From assembly GCA_027065835.1 (NCBI GenBank), contig JAMONK010000057.1, positions 1 to 15,381 of the forward strand: DNA of 15,381 bases, read 5' to 3'. How positions within the stretch are numbered: the first letter of the stretch is position 1; every line of letters begins with the position of its first letter. The notes below the pieces were generated by a model that saw only the letters and a program-made list of their open reading frames with translations, was not told where the DNA came from and did not search any database. Source of the stretch: Thermococcus sp. (GTDB taxonomy: Archaea > Methanobacteriota_B > Thermococci > Thermococcales > Thermococcaceae). Shown piece by piece: positions 2,253 to 9,387 of the stretch. Made by a program: the position numbers and the translations under genes.

Positions 2253-4028
2253 ATGAGGGTTAAGGAGGAAGAAGTTGGAATAGTAACCGGTGAAGCAAGC
2301 GTTAATTCTTTCCAGTTCTACGCCCAGCCGGACGTTGACTTAAAGTTCGGGGATTTCGTGGTTGCGAAGCTTTGTAAGGAGTCCCGCGAGAGGGAGTGCA
2401 GATGGAGCGACGATACGGAGTGGGTTATAGGGACAGTTCGCGGATTAAAGAACATAAACTGGCTTCTCAGTGAGGGAAAGAGCACCTACCACTCCCTGGA
2501 ACTCGACATACGGGAGTACGGGGAGAGCATAGGAGAAAACGAAGCCATGATCGTGAGCGTCCGGGTCCTCGGAAGGGTCAGGGTAAACGGCGAGCGGGCA
2601 GAGGTAGTCCCCAATCGCGTGCCCATCCCGAACGGGAACAGGGTTTACAGGGCCAGTTCGGAGCTTCTGAAGGCCATTTACTACGGGGGAAAAGCGTTCA
2701 TAGAGATAGGGAATCTCCTCCTGAGGGAGGACGTGCCGATATACCTCAACGCAAACGAGCTTGTATCAAGGCACTTCGCCGTCCTGGCAGTCACGGGAGC
2801 GGGTAAGTCCAACGCCGTTTCCGTGCTCATCGGCGAGACCGTTAACAGGCTCAGGGGGACGGTGGTTGTCCTCGACCCCCATGGCGACTACACGAAACTC
2901 CGCCTGCCCGGAACAGGAAGGGAGTACGTGAAGCTTATCGAGGCCAAGATCACCCCAGAGGAGATGGACAGTGAAGAACTAGCGGACCTTATAGAGGTCG
3001 CCAGCAACGCGACGATACAGAGGGAGTTCCTCGCAAAGGCCTGGGAAACCGTCAGGCACGAAAACCAGGGTGTGGGGGGACGCGAGCTCATAGAGCGCCT
3101 GATGGAGACGATAAACGAGTGGATAAGAAACAGGGCCGCGTATTTCTGGGACGAGGGAAAGGGAGGCTACATCACGGAGGACCTAAAGGGTGAGCGCATA
3201 GAGACGCTGCGTGGGGTCGTTTACAGGATAAGGCGCTTTTTACGGAACTACGGTTCCCTTCTGACGAGTGAGGACCTCGTGTCCCAGATAGAAAGCGGAA
3301 AGGCCAACGTTATCGACCTGGGTCCCCTGGACGAGGGACAGATGAAGGTCGTCGTCGGCAAGCTCCTCGGGAAGGTGTTCGAAACTCGCCTCGACTACGA
3401 AAAGGCCCGAAAAACCCTCTCCAGGCTGAAGGACGACCTGGCAGGGAGCCACAACTCGGCAACGGCGGAGAGGATAAGGGAGCTGGAGTCGTTTATGAGG
3501 GCCATCGAAAGGAGGAGTCCCGCCCTCGCGGAACCTATACTCATAATAGTAGAAGAGGCACACATCTTCGCACCGCAGGGAGAACACAACGATGCTGTCC
3601 GTACACTCAGCAGGATAGCCCGTGAAGGACGTAAGTTCGGTGTGGGACTGGGCATCGTCTCCCAGAGACCCAACAAGCTCAACGAAGACGTTCTAAGCCA
3701 AACGAACACCAAAATAATCCTCCGTATAGTCAACCCCAAAGATCAGGACTACGTGCTCAAGGCCAGCGAACAGCTGAGCTCTGACCTCCTGGGCGATATC
3801 GCTTCCCTCGGAAAGGGAGAGGCCGTCATAGTGGGTCAGGCGATAAGCCTGCCGGCCCTTGTGAAGATACACCACTTCAAGTCCCTCTGCGAAAAAGGGG
3901 TATGCGGTGACTACGGTGGGGAGGACATCGGCGTCGTGAACCGCTGGCTGGAGAGGGTAAAACGGGAAGAGGAGGAGAGGAAGCTTGAGGAGGTCTACGA
4001 GGAGGAAGGCGTTGACATCGATTTCTGA
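2253..4028 (+). CDS. herA: HerA hexameric DNA translocase/helicase of the end-resection operon
   Basis: HerA is a FtsK-like hexameric ATPase that pumps double-stranded DNA into its partner nuclease NurA during long-range 5'-strand resection. The 591-residue product has an N-terminal HAS-barrel region (about 1-160, with VGIVTGEAS and FGDFVVAK), Walker A in [11 protein letters not shown] (177-187), the post-Walker segment [10 protein letters not shown] (about 204-213), a helical insertion with charged residues (about 235-420), Walker B with catalytic glutamates IIVEEAH (about 431-437), and the arginine-bearing SQRPNKL motif (about 470-476). The tail is highly acidic and basic (about 568-591). 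Length and motif order match archaeal HerA. It is the first gene of the operon; mre11 starts 9 nt after its stop, and the stop codon forms part of the mre11 SD (GAGGTG, 4027-4032). Confidence 0.95.
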
Positions 4029-4037
4029 GGTGTTCGC

Positions 4038-5390
4038 ATGGTGAAGTTCGCACACATAGCAGACGCCCACCTGGGGTACGAACAGTACCGCCTGCCCTAC
4101 CGGGCCGCCGAATTCGCGGAGGCGTTCAGAAGGGCCGTTGAGATATCCGTACGCGAGGACGTCGACTTCATCCTAATATCCGGCGACCTCTTCCACCAGA
4201 GTCGGCCGAGCCCCGAAACCCTGAAAGAAGCCATAGAAATACTCTCAACCCCACGGGATAGGGGTATACCCGTCTTCGCGATAGAGGGGAACCACGACAG
4301 AACCCAGAGGAGGATCTCCGCCTATCACCTCCTTGAGGGACTGGGTCTTTTGAACCTGGTGGGCCTGCGCGAGGAGGGAGTCGAGAACGAGCACCTGAAG
4401 AGCCGCCGCCTCGGAAACAAATTCCTCGTCAAGGGGGTATTTGAAAAAAACGGAGAAAGCATTGAAATTCATGGGATGCGATATATGAGCGCTGCCTGGC
4501 TTGAGAAGAACCCGCTGGAAGGGATGTTCAGGCCGAAGGGGGACGCCATCCTCATGCTGCACCAGGGGATAAAGGAGCTGGTCGAGGAGATGATGGGGGT
4601 TCTGCCAGAGAGTCAGAGGGACTACTTCGAGCTCAAGCTGGGAGACCTCCCCAAGGGCTACCTCTACTACGCTCTCGGCCACATACACAAGAACTTCGAG
4701 ACAACCTACGACATCGGAAAGCTGGTCTATCCCGGATCACTCCAGCGCTGGGACTTCGGTGACTACGAGACAAGGTACCGCTGGGATGGCAGGGCGTTTA
4801 AGGCCAGGGAGGGTACCAGGAAAGGTTTCTACATCGTAGAGGACTGGAACCCAAGGTTCGTTGAGCTTAAAGTCAGGCCTTTTGTGGACATCCGGATCGA
4901 GGCCGACGAGGAGACCGCCAGGCGTGAGCTGGAGCGCCTTGGAAAGAAGATACCCAAGGAGGCCTTCGTGCGCCTCGACCTCAAATGGGAGCGGCCCTTT
5001 GATGTGTCCGCTTTCTACAGCCTCCTTCCAGTTCGCTACCTGTACGTTAGAACGCGCTTTGAGAGAAAGTCCAGGAAAGGAGAGAAATCCGGAGAAGTGC
5101 CGAAAGTCGAGGACTACTTCCATCCCATAGAGCTGAAGGCCATAGAGCTGACGGGGGTAAAGAAGCTGGGGAACGTCGAGGGGGTGATCGAACTCTTCCT
5201 CGAAGGTGAGTGGGAGCCGAAGGAAGATGGCACTGAGGGGAAAGCGGAGGAGCCCAGAGAAAAGGCGGAAAGAGCCGAGAAAGAAGCCAAAAAATCACCG
5301 AGAGAGCATGAGGAGGAAAAGGTAAGGGAGAAGAAAGCGCCCCAGAAGAAAGGGAAGGATCTGCTCGCATGGCTCGGTGGTGAGAGATGA
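4038..5390 (+). CDS. mre11: Mre11 DNA double-strand break repair nuclease
   Basis: Mre11 is the Mn-dependent endo/3'-5' exonuclease of the Mre11-Rad50 complex, which recognises and opens DNA ends. All metal-binding phosphodiesterase motifs are present: D9 and H11 (IADAHLG), D50 and H53 (SGDLFHQS), N85/H86/D87 (GNHDR), H175 (MLHQGIKE), and H215 and H217 (LGHIHKNF). The capping domain follows (about 245-345), then a Rad50-binding region. The last about 55 residues (396-450) are a charged, low-complexity linker rich in Glu/Lys/Arg that ends in the hydrophobic patch [10 protein letters not shown]. At 450 residues it is somewhat longer than the well-studied Pyrococcus protein, because of this tail. 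The ATG at 4038 has GAGGTG 5 nt upstream. The stop overlaps the rad50 start (ATGA, 5387-5390), implying coupled translation. Confidence 0.97.
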   Translation: MVKFAHIADAHLGYEQYRLPYRAAEFAEAFRRAVEISVREDVDFILISGDLFHQSRPSPETLKEAIEILSTPRDRGIPVFAIEGNHDRTQRRISAYHLLEGLGLLNLVGLREEGVENEHLKSRRLGNKFLVKGVFEKNGESIEIHGMRYMSAAWLEKNPLEGMFRPKGDAILMLHQGIKELVEEMMGVLPESQRDYFELKLGDLPKGYLYYALGHIHKNFETTYDIGKLVYPGSLQRWDFGDYETRYRWDGRAFKAREGTRKGFYIVEDWNPRFVELKVRPFVDIRIEADEETARRELERLGKKIPKEAFVRLDLKWERPFDVSAFYSLLPVRYLYVRTRFERKSRKGEKSGEVPKVEDYFHPIELKAIELTGVKKLGNVEGVIELFLEGEWEPKEDGTEGKAEEPREKAERAEKEAKKSPREHEEEKVREKKAPQKKGKDLLAWLGGER

Positions 5391-8056
5391 GGATAGAAAA
5401 GCTCTTGGTCAAAGATTTTCGGTCCCATAAGTTTACGAGGGTAACCTTCACCGGAGGCATAAACCTGATAGTGGGGCAGAACGGGAGCGGGAAGAGCTCA
5501 CTTCTGGACGCGCTTCTTGTAGGTCTCTACTGGCCCACGAAACCAAAGGACCTGAGGAAGGAGGACATCCTGCGGATAAGGGGAAGCGACGCCGATAAGA
5601 CCTCCACGGAGATAACGGTCTTCTTCGAAAAGGGTGGAGTCAGGTACCAGGTACACCGAAAGATAACCCGGGGGGTAGCGTACATCAAATACCTGGATGG
5701 CGACACATGGAGGGCCCTGGAGAGCGGTCAAAAGGGAGTACGGGATTGGATAGAGAAAACGATACCCTACGACGTTTTTCTCAACGCGATATATATAAGG
5801 CAGGGGGAGATAGACGCCATCCTGGAGAGCGACGAGAGCAGGGATAAGGTTGTGAGGCAGGTTCTGGGTCTGGACAAGTACGAGAACGCCTACCGGAATC
5901 TGCTGGACGTCAGAAAAGAAATCGAGGGGAGAATAAGGTCCATAGAGGATTACCTGAAGAGCACGGAGAACCTTGACGACCTCATATCCTCCATGGAAAA
6001 GGAACTCTCGGAAACCCTGAGGGAGATAGGGGAACTCTCCTCTGAGATTCCAAAGCTCACAAAAAAACTCCAGAAGGCTGAGGAAGAACTGAAACGGCTG
6101 GATTCCCTCGAAAAAGAAATAAACTCCCTGATGCTCACCATAAAAAAGAAAGAAGGCAACCTCAATGCTCTGGAAGCGAGACGGCTGGAGCTGAAGGAAA
6201 GGATAACAGAAGCACGGGAGCGCATCAAGGCCCTGGAGAAAAAGGTTGAAGAACTGAAGGGACTTAAGGACAAGGCAGAAGAGTATACACGGCTCTCGGA
6301 GTTCAGGAAACATTACGTGGATGGGAAGGCCAGGAACGAGAAGCTCATGGCGGAGTACCGGGCCCAGATCTCGGGGATAGACGAGAGGCTCAAGGAACTG
6401 GAGGGCCTCAAAAAACGCCTTGGAGAACTAACCGGCAGGAAAGAAGAGCTGGAGAAAAAAGCGAAGGAGCTTGAAGAGGACGTTAAAGCCTATGAAGAGG
6501 CTAAATCGCTGACCTCCAGCCTTGAAAGGCTCCGGAAACGGTTGAAGTTGAAGCCCGAGGAAGTGGAGGAGCTTGAGAGGAGCGTTGATGAGGCCAGGGA
6601 CCGGAAAGAAGAGATACAGAGAGAGTTCGAAACCATAAAAGAGAAGCGTGGTGAGCTGAAAAACCTGGCAAAGGAAAGGAACGGGGCGATACTGGAGCTC
6701 CGGAAGGCGCGGGGGAAATGCCCAGTCTGCGGCAGGGAGCTCACCGAGAAGCACAAGGAGGACATCATCAAGAGGTACCAAGAGGAGCTGAAGGAAGTCG
6801 CTGCCAGGGTAAAGGAGCTGGACGAACGGGAACGGGCGTTGAGAAAGGAGCTTGTAAGGGTGGAAGAAGTTCTCAAAAGGGAGAAAGAGCTGATAGCCGC
6901 AAGGGAGCTTTTGAAGCAGATTGAAGAGATAGAGGGCAAGCTGAATAGGTACAACCTGGAGTCACTTGAGAAAAGGGCGAAGGAACATGAGATGCTGAAG
7001 GGAGAGCTGGAAAAGCTCAAAGGCGAAATGGCGGGCATTCAACGGGAGCTGGAGCGCGAGAGCACTCTACTGAAAAAGAAGGATACACTCAACAAAAAGC
7101 TGAAGAAAGCTGAAGAAGAACTTCTAAGGCTGAACGAAGAACTAGAATCCCTCGGTTTTTCAAACATCAAGGGTCTAGACTCCCGGATAAAAGGGCTGGA
7201 GCCGGCGTATCAGAGGTACCTGGAGCTTAAGTCCTCACCCGCGGAGCTTGAAAAAGAGAGGAAAGCTCTGGAGAAATTCAGGAGAGACATGGAGGGCCTG
7301 GTGAAGAAGCTCAAGGATGAGGACAGAGAGCTTAACTCATTGAGGAAGGAGCTGGAGGAGAAGAGAGGTGCCTACGACCCGGAAAAACACGCCGAGGCCA
7401 GAAAGCACTTCATCGGGCTCAAAGAGGAGCTCGCCACGAAGAACGCTGAACTTGAAGGTGCGAGAAAGAAACACGACGAGATAATGGGGAGACTGAAGGA
7501 GTTCAAGGAAGAAAGGAGAGAACGTGAACGGAAGCTTCTGGACCTACAAAAGCTGAAAAAAGCCCGTGAAAGAGTCCAGGAGCTGAGGGAAAAGGTAAGA
7601 CGATACAAAGCAATGCTGAGAGAGGACGCCCTGGCAAAGGTCGGCGACGTGGCCAGCAAGATATTCGAGGAGCTGACGGAGGAGAAGTACTCTGGGATAA
7701 CGGTCAAGGCGGAGGAGAACAAGGTGAAGCTCGGCGTCGTTTACAGCGGAAGGGAGCACGGTCTGGGATTCCTGAGCGGCGGCGAGAGGATAGCCTTAGG
7801 ACTGGCGTTCCGCCTCGCACTGTCTCTGTATCTGGCGGGGGAGATAAGCCTGCTCATCCTGGACGAACCAACACCTTACCTCGACGAGGAGAGGCGTAGG
7901 AGGCTCGTGGACATAATGAGCCGCTACCTGAGGAAGATACCGCAGGTCATAGTCGTCTCCCACGACGAAGAGCTCAAGGACGCGGCGGACCGCGTGATAA
8001 AGGTAAGCCTGGAAAACGGGGTCTCCGTGGTGAGGGAGGTAGAACTGGGGGTGTGA
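5387..8056 (+). CDS. rad50: Rad50 ABC-type ATPase of the Mre11-Rad50 complex
   Basis: Rad50 is the SMC-like ATPase that clamps DNA ends, tethers them through its coiled coils, and gates Mre11 activity. The 889-residue protein shows Walker A GQNGSGKS (30-37), the Q-loop region [10 protein letters not shown] (about 136-145), a long first coiled-coil arm, the zinc hook CPVC at residues 445-448, a returning arm, signature LSGGE (796-800), Walker B LLILDEP (822-828), D-loop YLDE (831-834), and switch histidine in VVSHDEE (H859). The hook is almost central, as expected for two antiparallel arms of equal length. The arms are built of Lys/Glu/Leu heptads, which lowers local G+C somewhat, unlike the composition break in nurA. 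The ATG overlaps the mre11 stop and has GGTGGTGAG at 5376-5384. Confidence 0.97.
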
Positions 8057-8058
8057 GC

Positions 8059-9387
8059 ATGTACCGTTTGATAGACAGAAGGAGCGTTAACAGGATCAAG
8101 AGCATGCTGCAGAGGGGCTATGAAGAGGCAAGGGGAAAGATGGCCGAGGTGGAGTGGCGGCCCCTCCCCAAGGAGAGGGAAAGCTGCACGGTATACGCCG
8201 TTGATGGGAGCCAGGGAAAGCAGCGGCTCAGCGGGACGATATTTTACACCGTCTCCTCCTACGCCTTTGGAAACGGACCAAGCTACCGTCTGGTGTACAC
8301 GAACGCCATGCTCTACAACCAGGGGATATCCGACCAGATAATCCGCCTCCAGATGGAGACCCTTGAGAACAAGCTGGGATTTCTGGCCGCAGAGCTCGGG
8401 GAAGTTGAGTACGTCATGATGGACGGAACGCTGACAGGCTCTCTCACAAGGCCACCGGTTTATCCGGAGAGTGTGAGGGGGATAAATGCTCTCCAGGTCG
8501 TATTAGAGGACGAATTTACTTCCATGATAGAATTCGTACTGAATAGACTTGATCAAAACTATCAAAATCTTGAGTCCCAGCTCAAAAAAGAACAAAAAAG
8601 CTATGATGAAGTAATATTCGCAGAGTCTCTTATGAGAGATGTTTTCAGAAAGTTCTTCAAAAACAAGCTCATTGCTCACTCTAAGGGAATCAGAATAAGA
8701 AACTGTGAAACAGCACCAGAAAAGGTATTAATACCCCTTGAAGCCCTTGAGAGATACAGAGGGAAAAGTGTTGAGGAAGCCGTTGAGAATTTAAGGAAGA
8801 GGTATTGCAGAGAGATAGTAATCGAAGACATCAAAGAAGCTATCCATGTAGTTTTAAGTTATCTCGAGTATCTTTACTCCCTAGAACAACTGCTTAACAT
8901 TAATCTAATTTACGTCGCTAAAAGCTTTTATACAAAACGATTCGCAAAGAAAGCAGGTCTTGGCCTTCCGGATGTACCATACCTGGATTCATATATTAGA
9001 AGCAAATTCGGCGAAGAGATTCCAGGGTATCTCCCCTTTCCAGAACCAGTAAAAGTTGAGCATTCACTTCCAGAACCACTAAAAGGGTTCTTTCCAAAAA
9101 TTGAAAAACTGGGCTCTACAGGCGTTCCTTCTTCATACATCCGCACTATGAAGGGAGGGGTGATATACCTCCTCCAGAGCAACAGGACGATAGACGACGA
9201 GCTCCTGAGCAGGGTACTGTGGCACGAGAGCAATGGGTACTTCAGACCGCTGCAGAGGGCCCATGAGGGTGTTAAAATAGAGAAAAAGGCGTTTGAAGCC
9301 GAACTCGCTGCACTGTTGAACATAATAAAAAAGGAGAGTCCGGAGCTCAGGGTCTTCCTGAAGTACGGACGCTCACCCCTGGAATGA
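8059..9387 (+). CDS. nurA: NurA 5'-3' nuclease, partner of HerA (internally mosaic gene)
   Basis: NurA is a dimeric Mn-dependent nuclease that sits on the HerA hexamer and degrades the 5' strand (and ssDNA) during end resection. Conserved motifs: Asp49 in YAVDGSQG (46-53), Asp122 in [12 protein letters not shown] (118-129), and the C-terminal Tyr394 and His402 in [13 protein letters not shown]. The 442-residue length is typical. I chose ATG 8059 because GGGGGTG (8047-8053) is 5 nt upstream. A GTG at 8053 overlaps the rad50 stop but has no properly spaced SD. Bases about 8505-9125 (residues about 149-355) are about 38% G+C with AAA, GAA, AGA and TTA codons, whereas both ends of the gene are about 53-58% G+C. 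The frame is uninterrupted, so the gene looks functional but recombinant. It ends 23 nt from the stop of a convergent gene, with no T-rich terminator between. Confidence 0.94.
8505..9125 (+). other. AT-rich mosaic tract inside nurA, probable recombination import
   Basis: I counted G and C by hand in ten 60-base lines from 8521 to 9120: 21, 19, 21, 25, 25, 21, 18, 26, 28 and 23, that is 227/600 or 38%. The line before (8461-8520) has 28/60 and 8401-8460 has about 32/60; the lines after have 32/60 (9121-9180) and about 34/60 (9181-9240). The shift is abrupt at both ends and keeps the reading frame. Codons for Lys, Glu, Arg, Leu and Asn change to AT-ending forms within the tract. No inserted gene, inverted terminal repeats or target duplication were seen. 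It therefore resembles homologous replacement by a low-GC Thermococcales allele rather than an insertion. Boundaries are accurate to perhaps 20-30 bp. Confidence 0.75.

What the first reader, a model, noticed from the sequence alone, without database searches (positions are those of the whole stretch)
8505..9125. Mosaic nurA: a low-GC core inside a high-GC gene
Within one intact reading frame, about 620 bp drop to about 38% G+C (hand count 227/600 for 8521-9120), against about 53-58% immediately on both sides. Codon choice shifts to AAA, GAA, AGA, TTA and AAT. The catalytic motifs at both ends ([21 protein letters not shown]) lie outside the tract. Homologous import from a low-GC Thermococcales relative is the simplest reading. 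A swap of the middle of a nuclease that must dock on HerA is notable: it could reflect partner matching, escape from a viral inhibitor of HerA-NurA, or a neutral recombination scar.
Basis: partly seen in the sequence, partly recalled or inferred. Interest (0 to 1): 0.75.

Follow-up and report, generated by a model that had tools for sequence, protein, structure and literature searches.

The report
Swapped middle of a repair nuclease
In Thermococcus archaea the middle of the DNA-cutting repair enzyme NurA has been replaced several times, between species and at the same two borders, by ancient alternative versions; the low-GC stretch seen here is one such replacement, and what favours the exchange is still unknown.

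Summary
The import reading is supported. Residues 1-144 and 362-444 belong with the sister genome G055, as do rpoB, herA, mre11 and rad50. Residues ~145-358 are 38% identical to G055 but 83-88% to T. thioreducens and three allies (core type alpha). AU tests reject the single-history alternatives tested.

It is not a one-off scar. In 39 class-I NurAs (Thermococcus and two sister genera) flanks are 66-100% identical, while the core comes in discrete types (30-55% between types, flanks up to 97%). Core type changes at least 6-7 times over 28 genomes, with the same borders in the six cross-type pairs examined. Within alpha the core changes little in protein. Among 171 gene pairs compared for one swap pair, only nurA shows an internal identity drop over 0.3.

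HerA contacts reported for T. kodakarensis NurA all lie in the flanks, and core type does not follow HerA subtype, so HerA matching is disfavoured. I infer that discrete alleles of a HerA-independent, dimerisation-associated module are kept by selection, possibly by inhibitors from mobile elements. That agent is not shown.

The parts
8053..9387 (+). nurA, 444 aa, intact; last gene of herA-mre11-rad50-nurA
   Evidence: Pfam PF09376 E=3.8e-40
8053..8484 (+). N-terminal flank (residues 1-144): RNase-H-like strands, catalytic D51, HerA contacts R5, I7, F72; shares ancestry with sister genome G055
8425..8484 (+). left conserved anchor, residues 125-144 ([20 protein letters not shown]); identity between cross-type partners ends at its end
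   Evidence: 6 cross-type pairs examined
8485..9126 (+). exchanged core, type alpha (residues 145-358), 38.3% GC: helical motif between strands beta4 and beta5, beta5, and a variable linker
   Evidence: ancestry borders 8316..8457 and 9144
9136..9183 (+). right conserved anchor, residues 362-377 ([16 protein letters not shown]); identity between cross-type partners resumes here
9127..9384 (+). C-terminal flank: HerA contacts M366, H391, R402, I424, P442, L443 and the unwinding residues; ancestry again that of G055
   Evidence: PMC12977600 sections 9 and 13
2253..4028 (+). herA, 97% identical to G055, 68-69% to the four other alpha-core holders
4038..5390 (+). mre11, 89% identical to G055
5387..8056 (+). 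rad50, 91% identical to G055

Best explanation
SHOWN: the window's NurA is a mosaic. Its own lineage (sister G055) supplies the catalytic and HerA-docking flanks, and an alpha-type core sits in frame between two strongly conserved anchors. The same module has been exchanged several times in the genus, leaving discrete core types that cross species lines. INFERRED, mechanism of exchange: allelic homologous recombination with incoming DNA of another Thermococcus; the conserved anchors give the pairing homology and the divergent core is replaced between them. No convincing spare core was found in the genomes searched. INFERRED, why it persists: the core carries the archaeal beta4-beta5 motif (reported to aid PfNurA dimerisation) and none of the published HerA contacts, so alternative versions can be plugged in without breaking the HerA motor. 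Selection from something that recognises this surface, most likely an inhibitor made by viruses or plasmids, favours carrying a type that is locally rare.
For: Mosaic: flanks 93-95% / core 38% to G055, against flanks 83-85% / core 83-88% to the four other alpha holders; dS 0.23-0.29 in the flanks and saturated in the core; two-breakpoint fit log-likelihood -87 against -177 for the best of 200 label permutations, these scanned on a coarser grid; AU tests. Recurrence: pairs with nearly the same HerA/Mre11/Rad50 but different cores are win/G055, G071 (T. thioreducens)/G070, G028 (T. peptonophilus)/G068 and G029 (T. piezophilus)/G041; at least 6 changes on the HerA+Mre11+Rad50 tree and 7 on the rpoB tree, 28 genomes each, quick trees; same borders in 6 cross-type pairs. 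Not background: nurA is the only one of 171 gene pairs with an internal drop over 0.3 between G041 and G029. Discrete and constrained: within alpha, core dN is 0.05-0.09 with dS 2.7 to saturated; types are 30-55% identical, alpha cores 83-99% among themselves. HerA contacts lie outside the core.
Against: The selective agent is not shown; no inhibitor was searched for directly. Within types there is no sign of fast, positively selected change (omega about 0.02-0.07 where finite, from saturated dS), unlike a classic arms race. The dimerisation role of the motif is taken from one passage of PMC9960219 and was not tested. The genome-wide control rests on one pair; its 171 gene pairs cover 158 kb, under a tenth of the genome, and 12 of them are under 70% identical. 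Beta cores are themselves as low as 48% identical among 496 pairs, so 'beta' is a broad type. The low-GC donor is unidentified; one alpha holder (G061) has hardly any dip and the beta core of G070 has a moderate one (GC3 -0.16). Class-II NurAs, about as common in the genus, show no such swaps (0 of 80 close pairs). rpoB places G068 away from G028, so that pair is close in the operon rather than as species; G028's rpoB neighbours G069 and G024 are also beta.
Confidence: 0.6

Rival explanations
1. Neutral recombination scar: Thermococcus species exchange DNA freely, and nurA simply caught a random tract whose inner part is divergent.
For: Interspecies recombination is known in this order (VARTIG, PMC8416519), and low-GC tracts may fade with time (core minus flank GC3 from -0.38 to -0.03 among alpha holders).
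Against: Only nurA of 171 gene pairs shows it between G041 and G029; 6-7 changes hit the same module with the same borders in the 6 pairs examined; HerA, Mre11 and Rad50 show such drops far less often (10, 33 and 34 of 666 pairs over 0.35, against 322 of 741 for NurA). Neutral swaps do not explain why types 30-55% identical persist across species.
Confidence: 0.12
2. Dimer or partner specificity: the core is a self-association or third-partner surface (for example SSB, Mre11-Rad50 or an accessory protein), and each type matches a partner encoded elsewhere.
For: The motif between beta4 and beta5 contributes to PfNurA dimerisation (PMC9960219, passages), and the corresponding stretch of the model (residues 125-284) holds the most variable part of the core. 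Discrete types that change little in protein fit a physical partner.
Against: HerA, Mre11 and Rad50 do not change with core type in the four close pairs, and alpha and beta occur with both HerA subtypes. A homodimer needs no outside diversity. Partners outside the operon were not tested.
Confidence: 0.22
3. Matching to HerA.
For: HerA itself has two subtypes around residues 271-330.
Against: All nine reported NurA contacts to HerA map to the flanks and are the same residues in the window; core and HerA subtypes combine: beta X 17, beta Y 13, alpha X 1, alpha Y 4, gamma Y 1, delta X 1.
Confidence: 0.04
4. Assembly chimera of the fragmented genome assembly that holds the window.
For: The genome is 75% complete in 260 contigs, and related strains may have been co-assembled.
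Against: It would need two in-frame switches 650-830 bp apart; the same architecture stands in genomes of one or two contigs (G071, G028, G029).
Confidence: 0.04

Closest known systems
Archaeal HerA-NurA helicase-nuclease, T. kodakarensis (PDB 9x1l; PMC12977600) and P. furiosus NurA (3tai)
   Same: Same Pfam family and fold; catalytic and HerA-docking residues kept
   Different: The T. kodakarensis enzyme aligns well in the flanks and poorly in the core; the sections of PMC12977600 and the passages of PMC5715905 and PMC9960219 that I saw do not discuss exchange of cores
VARTIG hypervariable Ig module of Thermococcales (PMC8416519; abstract and passages seen)
   Same: One domain of a protein is diversified by recombination between species of Thermococcales at the same locus, not within one genome
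   Different: VARTIG is patchy, of unknown function and called highly unlikely to be essential; nurA could not be disrupted in T. kodakarensis (PMC12977600, section 14). NurA has 0 occurrences in the main text of the VARTIG paper
Specificity-domain exchange in type I restriction systems (recalled)
   Same: Conserved segments flank interchangeable variable domains
   Different: No second copy or invertible cassette seen here, and no DNA sequence specificity known to me for NurA
RecBCD and its phage-encoded inhibitors (PMC9836394; listing with the start of the abstract seen)
   Same: A DNA-end-processing nuclease complex that is targeted by phage inhibitors
   Different: No NurA inhibitor is known to me; none turned up in the listing, and none was searched for in genomes

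Membership tests
NurA nuclease (PF09376) | NurA domain match over the curated cut-off | tested here: met
   138.4 bits against a cut-off of 21
NurA nuclease (PF09376) | catalytic aspartate (T. kodakarensis D49) kept | tested here: met
   D51, in 39 of 39 class-I rows
NurA nuclease (PF09376) | operon with herA, mre11, rad50 | tested here: met
NurA nuclease (PF09376) | nuclease activity with HerA | not testable with these tools
   needs protein
Recombinational domain-exchange locus (VARTIG-like) | variable domain with a tree unlike its flanks and the species | tested here: met
Recombinational domain-exchange locus (VARTIG-like) | several independent exchanges at the same place | tested here: met
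Recombinational domain-exchange locus (VARTIG-like) | Ig domains and variable downstream genes | tested here: not met
   Pfam gives only NurA for this protein; downstream genes were not compared. Not a VARTIG member, only alike in mode
Intragenomic cassette switching (silent donor copies) | spare cores elsewhere in the genome | tested here: not met
   core profile: 88 of 94 genomes match; 85 list one match; G053 has two pieces of one gene, G054 two pieces on two contigs, G031 one weak extra hit. The own genome is 75% complete
Anti-phage defence locus | protects against viruses or plasmids | not testable with these tools
   proposed for T. kodakarensis HerA-NurA in PMC12977600 on biochemical and structural grounds

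The most novel reading that the evidence does not exclude
NurA carries 'serotypes': trans-species allelic cores of a DNA-end nuclease, maintained by frequency-dependent selection from virus- or plasmid-encoded proteins that bind the face of NurA that HerA leaves free. That would make HerA-NurA an archaeal counterpart of RecBCD as an immunity hub, and the core type a readout of which inhibitors circulate.
Probability: 0.3. Interest if true: 0.87.

Novelty: new variant of a known kind. Interest (0 to 1): 0.72.

Why it matters
Core repair enzymes are expected to evolve by slow change. Here a nuclease whose gene could not be disrupted in T. kodakarensis swaps its middle between species at the same borders, while its motor-docking and catalytic parts stay put. 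That speaks to an open question raised in 2026 (PMC12977600): is archaeal HerA-NurA a resection enzyme, an antiviral nuclease, or both? Close pairs such as T. piezophilus against G041 or T. thioreducens against G070 are natural experiments in which, within the operon, almost only the NurA core differs, so the question can be tested by exchanging cores in a laboratory strain.

Tried and rejected
HerA matching: disfavoured on contact residues and free combination. Neutral background: disfavoured by the control; the same control for the window's own pair is weak, with only 15 rows, at least two of which (about 43-44% identical) are not true orthologues and stand there because all window rows were kept; nurA was the one row over 0.3. 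Mobile carrier: the core-only protein search gave 15 hits of 1091 candidates, all with the NurA Pfam domain, but that search admits only proteins of 0.55-1.75 times NurA's length, so it could not see a free-standing core; the six-frame profile search of 94 family genomes could, and found none convincing. With whole NurA: viral contigs 5 pattern matches, 0 confirmed; phages 0; plasmids 1, Methanocaldococcus jannaschii NurA at 30% over 38% of the query. Low-GC donor: not found; P0003, P0007 and P0008 carry further alpha or alpha-like cores (69-86% to alpha), but I had no scans of metagenome contigs to get their DNA. Outside the family: the 88 genomes with a match among 115 of the phylum are the same 88, so 0 of the 21 further genomes match. 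Class II: 0 of 80 pairs with flanks of 85% or more have a core under 60%; class I 95 of 278. The rpoB tree inside one search was wrong (wrong strand taken for some loci) and was replaced. Literature: searches for NurA with horizontal, virus and inhibitor, hypervariable, or domain swap listed nothing whose title or abstract start concerns exchange of the NurA core; the library is open-licence only and most papers were judged by the listing.

Full report
OBSERVATION. In the 136 kb of the same genome that I fetched, 600-bp windows average 0.552, sd 0.033; the dip inside nurA (0.171) stands far from the next of 53 ORFs (0.058).

IMPORT. The closest genome found is G055: rpoB is sister to it with full SH-aLRT support, and HerA, Mre11 and Rad50 are 97%, 89% and 91% identical. 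The flanks of NurA go with G055 (93%, 95% with slightly narrower borders), but the core is 38% identical to G055 and 83-88% to G071, G048, G037 and G061, whose flanks are 83-85% and whose HerA, Mre11 and Rad50 are only 60-69% identical. Among 317 informative sites, donor-like sites make up 222 of 240 inside the fitted tract and 7 of 77 outside; sites shared with only one of the three donors compared were left out; none of 200 permutations came near the fit. Flank dS to G055 is 0.23-0.29, like HerA 0.27 and Rad50 0.29 (Mre11 0.43); the core is saturated. The core tree puts the window in the alpha clade (SH-aLRT 100), the flank tree with G055 (95), and AU tests reject the alternatives. G055 carries the widespread beta core, found in 32 of the 47 class-I NurAs clustered, in genera g1, g4 and g5, so the window's lineage is the likely recipient. 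Species names for genomes (G071 T. thioreducens, G070 T. thermotolerans, G028 T. peptonophilus, G029 T. piezophilus) are my inference from equal contig lengths.

RECURRENCE. Over 39 class-I NurAs (741 pairs) alpha and beta cores are 30-42% identical while their flanks are 67-96%; gamma (G028) and delta (G029) are 35-44% to beta, 46-50% to alpha and 55% to each other; alpha cores are 83-99% among themselves, beta cores 48-99%. In four pairs HerA, Mre11 and Rad50 are nearly the same while the NurA core is 38-44% identical. win/G055 and G029/G041 are sisters on both trees, G071/G070 on the rpoB tree and together with G037 on the operon tree; G028 lies among beta holders on both (G024, G068 and G069 in the operon; G069 and G024 by rpoB), while rpoB puts G068 elsewhere. 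In the six cross-type pairs examined identity breaks after the motif ending PPVYPES and resumes at YIRTM. The core type changes at least 6 times on the HerA+Mre11+Rad50 tree and 7 on the rpoB tree, 28 genomes each. Within alpha, G071 and G048 differ by dS 2.69 in the core against 0.35-0.63 in flanks and neighbours, which suggests that alpha cores were exchanged again. The pair G061/G050 is less clean, since their HerA also differs.

CONTROL. Between G041 and G029, 400 kb each, 171 of 253 reciprocal best pairs were kept after dropping overlapping frames; they cover 158 kb, median identity 0.968, 12 of them under 0.7. nurA is the only one with an internal drop in identity over 0.3 (0.47; the next, 0.28, has unequal ORF lengths, then 0.17). 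This is one pair and under a tenth of its genome. Across class-I pairs a drop over 0.35 is seen in 322 of 741 for NurA, against 10, 33 and 34 of 666 for HerA, Mre11 and Rad50. Pairs are not independent.

ANATOMY. The model (mean pLDDT 75.7) has strands at 47-59, 62-73, 78-87 and 120-124, mostly helices through the core with a strand at 285-290, and the next long strand at 360-364, at the right border; it matches T. kodakarensis and P. furiosus NurA. HerA contacts of T. kodakarensis NurA (R3, I5, F70, M365, H390, R401, I423, P441, L442; PMC12977600 section 9) and the unwinding residues tested there (K407 to E414; section 13) map outside the core, and all nine contacts are the same residue here; I423 is the least conserved (I in 25 of 39 rows). 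The archaeal motif between beta4 and beta5 contributes to PfNurA dimerisation according to PMC9960219 (passages seen). The core is not free to vary: in a 41-row alignment it holds invariant residues such as H265, Y270 and K290-Y293.

GC. Six of seven non-beta cores have GC3 0.17-0.38 below their flanks; 18 beta cores of the genus average 0.04 below (the lowest 0.16, G070). G061 is the exception among alpha (-0.03). A low-GC origin with later amelioration fits, but no low-GC holder of the alpha core was found in the family genomes.

MECHANISM. I take exchange by homologous recombination in the conserved anchors as very likely. Competence and vesicle transfer in Thermococcales are recalled, not looked up. 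Why the types persist is inferred. The antiviral role proposed for HerA-NurA (PMC12977600; abstract, sections 9 and 13 and the first of two parts of the discussion read) makes an inhibitor-driven balance the most attractive reading, yet little protein change within alpha would also suit a fixed set of binding partners.

Noticed in passing
L073-L097, L102-L106, L108-L112 (class II) against L033-L072, L098-L101 (class I): The whole herA-mre11-rad50-nurA operon exists in two deep versions (class-II HerA 41-47% identical to the window) and both versions occur within genera g1 and g4, so the entire operon seems to be replaceable; class-II NurA shows no core swaps.
   Followed up: partly
window 3063-3242 (HerA residues 271-330): HerA has two subtypes in this stretch (77-98% or 28-40% identical to the window in class-I genomes of genus g1), perhaps its helix-bundle domain at the DNA entrance (a guess); it does not track the NurA core type.
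   Followed up: partly
L033 against L034, NurA core: Two close relatives both with alpha cores differ far more at silent core sites (dS 2.69) than elsewhere in the operon (0.35-0.63), as if the core was exchanged again within the type.
   Followed up: no
L115 (G000:C2) 3651-4616: End of a contig of the same genome at about 35-40% G+C, the only other tract with 600-bp windows at or under 40% in the 136 kb scanned.
   Followed up: no
G031:C1:812955-813215 (-): Weak second match to the NurA core in a 275-aa open frame, far from that genome's nurA (E 1e-4 to 6e-4).
   Followed up: no
model m301351e82a3b: Distant fold match to TdpAB (8wfd_G, E 6e-4); that TdpAB is an antiphage system is recalled.
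   Followed up: no
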